Source: Verrucomicrobiia bacterium
GTDB taxonomy: Bacteria > Verrucomicrobiota > Verrucomicrobiia > Limisphaerales > DASXHY01
Reading direction: 5' to 3'
DNA: 64,000 bases
Assembly (NCBI GenBank): GCA_035629175.1
Contig: DASPIL010000058.1
Location: 62,001-126,000 of the forward strand
Part shown: one piece after another, positions 57,130 through 59,297 of the stretch
Numbering within the stretch: the first letter of the stretch is position 1
How the letters are laid out: every line of letters starts with the position of its first letter
Notes under the pieces: generated by a model
The model's database searches: none
Seen by the model: only the letters and a program-made list of their open reading frames with translations
Told to the model about the DNA's origin: nothing
Made by a program: the position numbers and the translations under genes

Positions 57130-57867
57130 ATGAATAGCGGGCCTAAACCACGTTACGACCTCAAGCAGTATGCCAGCGCGGATGCGCTGGCCCACTCGGT
57201 GGCATCGGGTCTCATTGAGAAATTCGAAGCAGCGGAACGGGATCGGCAGCCCATGCATATCGCGCTTTCCGGCGGGCGAATTTCCAGGAACCTGTTTCAG
57301 GCGCTGACGCAACTGGCCGCAGCACGCGGGTTGTCCCTGAACACGATTCATTTCTTCTGGGCAGACGAACGCTGTTTGCCGCCCACTGATCCCGAAAGCA
57401 ACTTCTACACAGCCAACGAATTGCTGTTTCAGCCGCTGAACATCGCCACAGCGCAGATCCACCGGATCCGCGGAGAAGCCGCGCCCGCAGCCGCAGCCGA
57501 ACAGGCGGAACAGGAGATCAGGCGCGTGGTGGCCGCGGATCCCAACGGCCAGCCTGGCCTCGACCTGATCCTGCTGGGCCTCGGCGAGGACGGCCATGTT
57601 GCGTCATTATTTCCGGGGGAAAGCGAAGCTGCAGTGGCATCGCCCGCAGTTTACCGCGCGGTTCTCAATTCGCCGAAGCCTCCGCCGGCGCGCGTCACCT
57701 TGGGTTTTTGCGCAATCGCTGCCGCGAAAGAGGTTTGGATGCTCGCCTCCGGATCCGGCAAGGAACGCGCGCTCAGCGCAGCGCTGGCGGGGGAAGACAA
57801 TCCGTTCGGGCGGGTGCTGCGTGAGCGTCCATGTACGCAGATCTTCAGTGACATCCACGGTGGCTAG
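57130..57867 (+). CDS. pgl: 6-phosphogluconolactonase
   Basis: This 245-residue hydrolase (DevB/SOL family) converts 6-phosphogluconolactone to 6-phosphogluconate. Diagnostic parts are MHIALSGGRISRNLFQAL, IHFFWADERCLPPTDPESNF and LDLILLGLGEDGHVASLFPG, with the catalytic His in the last. The ATG at 57130 is used because it sits 2 nt after zwf and gives the family N terminus. It is followed by about 400 bp without a gene. Confidence 0.95.
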   Translation: MNSGPKPRYDLKQYASADALAHSVASGLIEKFEAAERDRQPMHIALSGGRISRNLFQALTQLAAARGLSLNTIHFFWADERCLPPTDPESNFYTANELLFQPLNIATAQIHRIRGEAAPAAAAEQAEQEIRRVVAADPNGQPGLDLILLGLGEDGHVASLFPGESEAAVASPAVYRAVLNSPKPPPARVTLGFCAIAAAKEVWMLASGSGKERALSAALAGEDNPFGRVLRERPCTQIFSDIHGG

Positions 57868-58029
57868 TTCCAGGAGCGATCGGGGATTTGCCTCTTGACG
57901 GGTTTTCAGATTGGTGCGACGGGTTTTCAGGCGCAAAGATCGCCACTGTTCTCTGAAAACCGGCATTGAATCAGATGAAAATAAATTTTGAACAAACTCG
58001 GGGTTGAGATGATCTATTATACTGTTGGG
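57868..58029. other. Spacer with repeated hairpin arms
   Basis: GGTTTTCAG occurs twice (near 57901 and 57922) as GACGGGTTTTCAG, and its complement CTGAAAACC lies at 57953-57961, so two alternative hairpins are possible. A TATTATACT box (58015-58023) lies just before the structured RNA candidate and may be its -10. I could not place a matching -35 at normal spacing. Confidence 0.4.
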
Positions 58030-58201
58030 TGAGTTTGGTTAAGGTTTCGCTGTTCGTTTAGGGTTAGTATAGAGGTTTTGCTTGTAATGCGGTTCGAGCA
58101 GCGAGCAATAGTTGGCCGCATTACCCTTCTGAGCGCCTTGGTGAAGGCGTATAAACCTCATCACCGTTTAGGGCCGGACCTTGTGTCCGGCCCTTTCATT
58201 T
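58030..58201 (+). ncRNA. Candidate structured ncRNA upstream of accA
   Basis: A gene-free stretch folds as a three-way junction. The outer stem is GAGGTTT (58072-58078) with AAACCTC (58153-58159). Hairpin A is GTAATGCGG (58084-58092) with CCGCATTAC (58116-58124) around a 23-nt loop. Hairpin B is CGCCTT GGTG AAGGCG (58134-58149). A terminator stem ends the unit at 58170-58201. CGTTTAGGG occurs at both flanks (58055 and 58165). An intrinsic terminator about 70 bp before accA suggests either an independent small RNA or a leader that controls accA. I do not match it to a known family (not tmRNA, RNase P or SRP RNA). Confidence 0.5.
58170..58201 (+). terminator. Terminator hairpin closing the RNA candidate
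   Basis: The 10-bp stem AGGGCCGGAC with GTCCGGCCCT around a 5-nt loop is followed by TTCATTT, a moderate U tract. Confidence 0.75.
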
Positions 58202-58271
58202 ACCACCGCAAAATCCGCATGGGAATTCACATTGCTTGAACCAGAGTGAGAGCCTAATCTTCGCCCCCGAA

Positions 58272-59297
58272 ATGAAACATCAACTCGACTTCGAAAAGCC
58301 GATTGTCGAACTGCAGAACAAGCTGGCTGAGTTGAAGAAGCATCCGGAAACTCATTCGCTGGGAATCAGCTTTGAGGACGAAATCCGGATGATCGAAAAG
58401 AAGATCGAAGACACACGGCGGCAGATCTTCACCAACCTTTCCGCCTGGCAGCGCGTCCAGCTCGCGCGGCATCCCAAGCGTCCCTTTACCCTCGATTATT
58501 TCAACACCACATTCACGGATTTTTCAGAATTGCATGGCGACCGCCTGTACGCTGAAGATCGCGCGATCGTCGGGGGCTTTGCCCGCCTCGGGGATCACCG
58601 CCTGATGGTCATTGGCACCCAAAAAGGCCGGGACACGAAGGAAAACATCAAACGGAACTTCGGATCAGCGCACCCGGAAGGCTACCGAAAGGCGCTGCGT
58701 CTCGTGAAAATGGCCAATAAGTTTGGCCTGCCCATCGTCGCATTAATCGATACCGCGGGCGCTTACCCCGGCATCGGGGCGGAGGAACGCCACATCGCCG
58801 AAGCCATCGCCGTCAACCTGCGCGAAATGATGCTCCTGGAAGTCCCCATCATTGCAGTCGTTATTGGCGAAGGCGGTTCGGGGGGAGCGCTTGGAATCGG
58901 CGTGGCCGATCGCGTCCTGATTCTCGAAAACGCCTATTACTCGGTGATCAGTCCCGAAGGATGCGCCGCAATTCTTTGGAAGGATCGATCCGCTTCCGCC
59001 AAGGCCGCCCAGGCCTTGCGGATCACAGCCAAAGACCTGCACGAACTGAAACTCGTCGATGCCGTTGTGCCCGAGCCGCTGGGCGGTGCGCATACCGACC
59101 CCGCGCAAACCGGCGAGAACCTGAAAGCGAACCTGCTTCAACACCTCGAAGAACTGCTGGCGTTGTCCTCATCGGAACGCCTGCGATTGCGATACGAGAA
59201 GTACCGCGCGTTCGGCCACTTTCAGGAAAAGGTCGCAACCCCGGCCGAACCGGTTCCTCCAGCAAAGGCGTCCTCGCGATCCGTCAAAGCCGCCTAA
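58272..59297 (+). CDS. accA: Acetyl-CoA carboxylase carboxyltransferase subunit alpha
   Basis: This 341-residue subunit forms, with AccD, the carboxyltransferase that makes malonyl-CoA, the committed step of fatty acid synthesis. The N terminus MKHQLDFEKPIVELQNKLAE decides the ATG at 58272. An in-frame TTG at 58236 is less likely. The crotonase-fold core has LHGDRLYAEDRAIVGGFARL, QKGRDTKENIKRNFG, IDTAGAYPGIGAEERHIAEA and VIGEGGSGGALGIGVADRVL. accD is not in the window. The upstream structured RNA candidate may influence its expression. Confidence 0.96.
   Translation: MKHQLDFEKPIVELQNKLAELKKHPETHSLGISFEDEIRMIEKKIEDTRRQIFTNLSAWQRVQLARHPKRPFTLDYFNTTFTDFSELHGDRLYAEDRAIVGGFARLGDHRLMVIGTQKGRDTKENIKRNFGSAHPEGYRKALRLVKMANKFGLPIVALIDTAGAYPGIGAEERHIAEAIAVNLREMMLLEVPIIAVVIGEGGSGGALGIGVADRVLILENAYYSVISPEGCAAILWKDRSASAKAAQALRITAKDLHELKLVDAVVPEPLGGAHTDPAQTGENLKANLLQHLEELLALSSSERLRLRYEKYRAFGHFQEKVATPAEPVPPAKASSRSVKAA

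What the first reader, a model, noticed from the sequence alone, without database searches (positions are those of the whole stretch)
58030..58201. Structured RNA with three-way junction and terminator before accA
Three independent long stems (7, 9 and 6 bp) nest into a junction and are followed by an intrinsic terminator. The flanks carry the same CGTTTAGGG. An AT-rich TATTATACT lies just upstream. No coding frame explains it. The terminator 70 bp before accA is what an attenuating leader or a free small RNA would show, and fatty acid synthesis is a reasonable control point.
Basis: partly seen in the sequence, partly recalled or inferred. Interest (0 to 1): 0.65.

Follow-up and report, generated by a model that had tools for sequence, protein, structure and literature searches.

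The report
Stress-promoter small RNA with double pseudoknot
An uncatalogued, doubly knotted small RNA gene, found in about half of the bacterial order Limisphaerales and apparently switched on by a stress-type sigma factor, lies in front of the fatty-acid gene accA by gene order rather than controlling it.

Summary
The structure is real. Homologues occur in 145 of 293 sampled genomes of the order Limisphaerales (Verrucomicrobiota) and in none of 287 other genomes of the phylum. No Rfam family matches. Over 94 distinct sequences, 37 of 44 proposed base pairs show two-sided compensatory changes. Two pseudoknots were missed; they covary although the search model did not contain them.

It is a free-standing small RNA gene, not an accA leader. 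At 64 of 73 loci it has its own promoter, GAAC-N18/19-TC (0.7 expected by chance). This matches the published sigma-E (RpoE) promoter in sequence and spacing, and differs from tmRNA promoters of the same order. It ends in its own terminator. Downstream genes vary and are often convergent. Some genomes carry tandem copies, each with promoter and terminator, and one copy lies on a phage contig. accA has its own conserved promoter after the terminator, just before its ATG.

Inferred only: the RNA is a trans-acting regulator made under ECF-sensed stress. The sigma factor, targets and mode of action remain unknown. The second CGTTTAGGG copy is coincidence.

The parts
57986..57993 (+). -35 element TTTTGAAC of the RNA's ECF-type promoter
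   Evidence: GAAC-N18/19-TC at 64 of 73 loci, 0.73 expected, 1 on the other strand
58013..58017 (+). -10 element TCTAT, 19 nt after GAAC
   Evidence: same motif; spacing equals published RpoE promoters (PMC4336711)
58022..58200 (+). predicted small RNA, about 175-180 nt; 5' end inferred as 6-8 nt after the -10 element, 3' end in the T tract
   Evidence: promoter and terminator positions; low folding energy z -3.46
58048..58056 (+). pseudoknot 1, 5' strand CGCTGTTCG
   Evidence: 8 of 9 pairs with two-sided changes, not in the search model
58095..58103 (+). pseudoknot 1, 3' strand, inside the P3 loop
58072..58078 (+). P2, 5' strand
   Evidence: 6 of 7 pairs with two-sided changes
58153..58159 (+). 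P2, 3' strand
58084..58092 (+). P3, 5' strand
   Evidence: 8 of 9 pairs with two-sided changes
58116..58124 (+). P3, 3' strand
58126..58132 (+). junction P3/P4, CTTCTGA, nearly invariant and unpaired
   Evidence: 95-100% identity per position in 99 sequences
58133..58137 (+). P4, 5' strand
   Evidence: 3 of 5 pairs with two-sided changes
58146..58150 (+). P4, 3' strand
58140..58144 (+). pseudoknot 2, 5' strand GGTGA in the P4 loop
   Evidence: 3 of 5 pairs with two-sided changes over 94 sequences, 4 of 5 over 24
58161..58165 (+). pseudoknot 2, 3' strand TCACC after P2
58170..58201 (+). intrinsic terminator of the RNA
   Evidence: 10-bp hairpin with T-rich tail; 9 of 9 stem pairs covary
58232..58260 (+). 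separate promoter of accA, TTGCTT-N17-TAATCT, ending 11 nt before the ATG
   Evidence: TTG[AC]-N17-19-TA element at 42 of 51 accA loci, 1.45 expected

Best explanation
A free-standing gene for a noncoding RNA of about 175 nt in Limisphaerales. An ECF (RpoE/sigma-E-like) sigma factor transcribes it from GAAC-N19-TCTAT. The RNA folds into a three-way junction (P2, P3, P4) whose two flanking strands are knotted back into the hairpin loops: the 5' strand into the P3 loop, the 3' strand into the P4 loop. Transcription stops at its own intrinsic terminator, before the separate accA promoter. Shown from sequence: conservation, fold, promoter class by motif, terminator, independence from accA. Inferred: it is made under an envelope-type or other ECF-sensed stress and acts in trans, either by pairing with mRNAs like the sigma-E-dependent sRNAs or through its compact fold by binding a partner.
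For: Homologues in 145/293 genomes of the order. 37/44 pairs with two-sided changes, pseudoknots 11/14 although absent from the model. GAAC-N18/19-TC at 64/73 loci against 0.73 expected, identical in spacing to published RpoE promoters and absent from 30 tmRNA promoters of the order. Variable and convergent downstream genes. Tandem complete copies. accA has its own promoter.
Against: No transcript data. The sigma factor was not found: none of the ECF genes of the window genome has a convincing copy of the motif upstream, skp/ompH lacks it in 26 RNA-bearing genomes, and motif frequency in the window genome equals the reversed control. No target was identified, and the most conserved bases sit inside the knotted core rather than in an obvious exposed seed. 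accA follows at 51 of 74 loci, so some link to it cannot be excluded.
Confidence: 0.75

Rival explanations
1. Attenuating leader or riboswitch of accA: the fold senses a signal and decides between termination and readthrough into accA.
For: accA lies 39-63 nt after the model end at 32 of 51 accA loci, same strand; the RNA ends in a terminator.
Against: accA has its own promoter after the terminator, which stays next to the ATG when the RNA is far away (L084, L101). At many other loci the next gene is different or convergent. Tandem copies and a phage copy have no accA.
Confidence: 0.06
2. A fold-based RNA rather than an antisense sRNA: it binds a protein or small molecule, or is a ribozyme, and its ECF promoter only sets when it is made.
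For: Two covarying pseudoknots and invariant junction bases, more typical of aptamers or ribozymes than of pairing sRNAs (general knowledge); no Hfq in the window genome.
Against: Nothing identifies a ligand, protein or cleavage site; terminator directly after the core with no switch visible.
Confidence: 0.3
3. 3' UTR-derived RNA of pgl, processed from the g6pd-pgl mRNA.
For: pgl lies upstream on the same strand at many loci.
Against: Its own promoter is conserved, including where pgl is absent; distance to pgl varies widely.
Confidence: 0.03
4. Chance hairpins without function.
For: None beyond the moderate z-score of the first fold (-2.6).
Against: Conservation over the order and covariation.
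Confidence: 0.005

Closest known systems
Sigma-E-dependent sRNAs (MicA, RybB, MicL of enterobacteria; FoxI and FoxJ of Fusobacterium nucleatum, PMC11005410)
   Same: Short noncoding gene with a GAAC..TC promoter and its own terminator; FoxI and FoxJ also work in a genome without Hfq or ProQ.
   Different: No sequence relation in Rfam; doubly pseudoknotted core with conserved junctions; no target or seed shown; sigma factor not identified.
6S RNA (RF00013)
   Same: Free-standing structured bacterial RNA of similar length.
   Different: Different fold; the window genome has its own 6S RNA elsewhere at 61.4 bits, and no 6S hit here.
SorX / SorY (RF02784, RF02651)
   Same: Best sub-threshold Rfam matches at this place.
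   Different: 25.4 bits against a cut-off of 46.6, and 22.8 against 111; the match rests largely on the terminator hairpin.
Pseudoknotted riboswitches and self-cleaving ribozymes (general knowledge)
   Same: Compact multi-helix fold with pseudoknots and invariant unpaired bases.

Membership tests
ECF/sigma-E-dependent small regulatory RNA | promoter recognised by an ECF sigma factor | tested here: met
   By motif only: GAAC-N18/19-TC at 64/73 loci, spacing as in RpoE promoters, unlike tmRNA promoters. The sigma factor itself was not identified.
ECF/sigma-E-dependent small regulatory RNA | discrete noncoding transcription unit with its own terminator, not tied to one downstream gene | tested here: met
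   frame-breaking length changes between homologues.
ECF/sigma-E-dependent small regulatory RNA | base pairing with target mRNAs, often envelope proteins | not tested
   No target search or expression data; conserved bases lie in the structured core.
ECF/sigma-E-dependent small regulatory RNA | expression induced by stress | not testable with these tools
   Needs RNA data.
cis-acting leader / riboswitch of accA | constant position in the leader of the same gene | tested here: not met
   accA at 51 of 74 loci; other and convergent genes elsewhere.
cis-acting leader / riboswitch of accA | controlled gene transcribed through the element | tested here: not met
   Separate accA promoter at 42/51 loci.
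SorX (RF02784) and other Rfam families | score at or above the curated gathering threshold | tested here: not met
   No family at gathering threshold at 57860-58320.
6S RNA (RF00013) | match to the 6S model at this locus | tested here: not met
   6S lies on another contig of the genome; no 6S hit in the window.

The most novel reading that the evidence does not exclude
The RNA is the noncoding arm of an ECF stress response in a phylum with very few known sRNAs and works through its doubly knotted fold, by capturing a protein or small molecule or by catalysis, rather than by an antisense seed; tandem and phage-borne copies change its dose.
Probability: 0.28. Interest if true: 0.75.

Novelty: new variant of a known kind. 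Interest (0 to 1): 0.56.

Why it matters
It is an uncatalogued structured RNA family in Verrucomicrobiota; a 2022 survey lists only 8 sRNA families for the whole Planctomycetes-Verrucomicrobia-Chlamydiae group (PMC9029176). The fold is well determined from sequence alone, with two pseudoknots. The promoter ties it to an ECF sigma factor, so the idea that sigma-E-type responses carry a noncoding arm becomes testable in another phylum, in a genome without a detectable Hfq. The common neighbourhood would mislead annotation into calling it an accA leader.

Tried and rejected
CGTTTAGGG as a functional pair: second copy not conserved. Extra helix AGGGT/ACCCT (58060-58064 with 58123-58127): by eye, changes in L019, L022 and L024 are not compensated. 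Known RNA: Rfam gathering and permissive scans. Sigma factor: upstream regions of ECF genes of the window genome show only weak, chance-level sites. Other motif sites in that genome are no more frequent than the reversed pattern, 8 against 9; the best looking, antisense between rplB and rplW, is not conserved. Stricter motif in 284 genomes: 20 sites against 2 in the control, 7-8 of them this RNA, the rest mostly single cases. skp/ompH as a co-regulated gene: 0 of 26 RNA-bearing genomes. Phage and plasmid records: no match. Literature searches found no description of this RNA; the library lacks many subscription papers, so that is weak evidence of novelty. One pair-count call failed on string length and was repeated.

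Full report
What is there. The window lies in a genome of the order Limisphaerales (Verrucomicrobia subdivision 3), judged from the titles of GTDB contigs that hold close relatives of the element. The element lies between pgl (57130-57867) and accA (58272-59297; Pfam). The predicted transcript folds better than all but 1 of 200 dinucleotide shuffles. No Rfam family reaches its threshold at this place.

Conservation. A plain DNA search of 58 genomes of the order gave 24 clear matches, the window included. A covariance model of the nested stems and terminator (R1) found the RNA in 145 of 293 genomes of the order. It found it in none of 287 other genomes of the phylum; that search used Infernal's stricter filters, so distant relatives could have been lost. 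A pattern scan of 84,980 species genomes gave 78 stretches, 76 of them confirmed by the model, nearly all titled Verrucomicrobia, Limisphaerales or Pedosphaera. A few carry other names; L061 and L063 among them have Limisphaerales-like g6pd or accA beside the RNA, so mis-binning or mislabelling is likely.

Structure. On 24 sequences, 26 pairs have two-sided changes. On 94 distinct sequences 37 of 44 pairs do, with 99.0% of cells paired and 0 of 500 shuffles reaching any measure; slid versions pair at 37-51%. Besides P2, P3, P4 and the terminator there are two pseudoknots. CGCTGTTCG (58048-58056) pairs with CGAGCAGCG (58095-58103) in the P3 loop, and GGTGA (58140-58144) in the P4 loop pairs with TCACC (58161-58165). 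These pairs were not in the model that made the alignment, yet 11 of 14 show two-sided changes. Examples are GACGA/TCGTC in L006 and GCTGA/TCAGC in L255. The most conserved unpaired bases lie in the junctions: CTTCTGA (95-100% per position) and AGGGTT (92-100%). PK1 and P3 can form together as an H-type pseudoknot; that they are simultaneous rather than alternative states is inference.

Promoter. Upstream of the core, 64 of 73 loci have [TC]GAAC, 18 or 19 nt, then TC; 0.73 are expected by shuffling, and 1 locus has it on the other strand. Published RpoE promoters read GAACTT, 16/17 bp, TCCAAA, which is the same 18/19 nt between GAAC and TC (PMC4336711). tmRNA genes of the order instead show CTTGAC with a TA-type -10, and none of 30 has GAAC-N17-20-TC. 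So the promoter is not of the housekeeping type. Recognition by an ECF sigma factor is inferred from the motif. The 9 loci without the strict motif include copies away from accA; a related TTTAAC form is visible in L064 and L107.

Independence from accA. The order g6pd-pgl-RNA-accA-manA is commonest, and accA follows at 51 of 74 loci. Elsewhere the next gene differs and is often convergent: Mur ligase (L074), PTR2 transporter (L061), PEPCK (L118), response regulators (L086, L099), radical SAM (L081), cytochrome c (L110). Gene calls there are simple ORFs, supported by Pfam where cited; some loci are cut by contig ends. In G242 three copies and in G214 two copies stand in tandem about 250 bp apart, each with GAAC..TC and a terminator. 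accA itself has TTG[AC]-N17-19-TA ending about 10 nt before its ATG at 42 of 51 loci, 1.45 expected. This element keeps its place next to the ATG when the RNA is further away (L084, L101). In the window it is TTGCTT-N17-TAATCT at 58232-58260. A promoter squeezed between terminator and ATG explains the short RNA-accA distance without a regulatory link.

Mechanism. The likeliest reading is that an ECF sigma factor makes the RNA under the stress it senses, and the RNA acts in trans. Sigma-E-dependent sRNAs of Proteobacteria and Fusobacterium repress envelope proteins by pairing; Fusobacterium does so without Hfq (PMC11005410), and no Hfq was found in the window genome. The conserved knotted core makes action through the fold a serious alternative, which I could not separate. 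Searches for the sigma factor and for a shared regulon were negative or inconclusive.

Verdict. I call it a variant of the ECF-dependent sRNA kind because of its doubly pseudoknotted core; membership in the antisense class is untested.

Noticed in passing
L139:8091-8246 (IMGVR_UViG_3300014199_000367, 36.7 kb): A copy of the RNA (127.5 bits) lies on a viral contig, between phage primase/helicase and helicase-loader genes and an integrase; it lacks the GAAC..TC promoter motif.
   Followed up: partly
L240:2607-3257 and L241:2241-2636: Tandem arrays of three and two complete RNA genes, about 250 bp apart, each with promoter and terminator; G242 has six matches in all.
   Followed up: partly
L071:7314-7527 and L271: In this copy the junction and P4 5' strand is expanded by tandem repeats of CCCTTCTGAGCG.
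   Followed up: no
L262 (G005:C112:17723-17753, minus strand): In a genome without this RNA the same promoter motif precedes a different noncoding stretch of about 130 nt ending in a strong terminator: a possible second ECF-driven small RNA.
   Followed up: no
L279 (G221:C75:14975-15004): The motif precedes a Skp/OmpH-like gene, a classical sigma-E target, but the main skp genes of 26 RNA-bearing genomes lack it.
   Followed up: yes
window 58232-58272 and accA loci L062-L136: The conserved accA promoter ends about 10 nt before the ATG, which suggests a leaderless or nearly leaderless accA mRNA across the order.
   Followed up: partly
window 57897-57961: Two direct copies of GACGGGTTTTCAG 21 bp apart plus an inverted copy of their GGTTTTCAG(A), downstream of pgl and upstream of the RNA promoter; possibly a pgl terminator or repeat.
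   Followed up: no
L061, L063, L087, L088, L110, L120: MAG contigs titled Methylacidimicrobium, Omnitrophota, Patescibacteria, Akkermansia and Hyphomicrobiales carry this RNA; L061 and L063 have Limisphaerales-like neighbours, so mis-binning or mislabelling is likely.
   Followed up: partly
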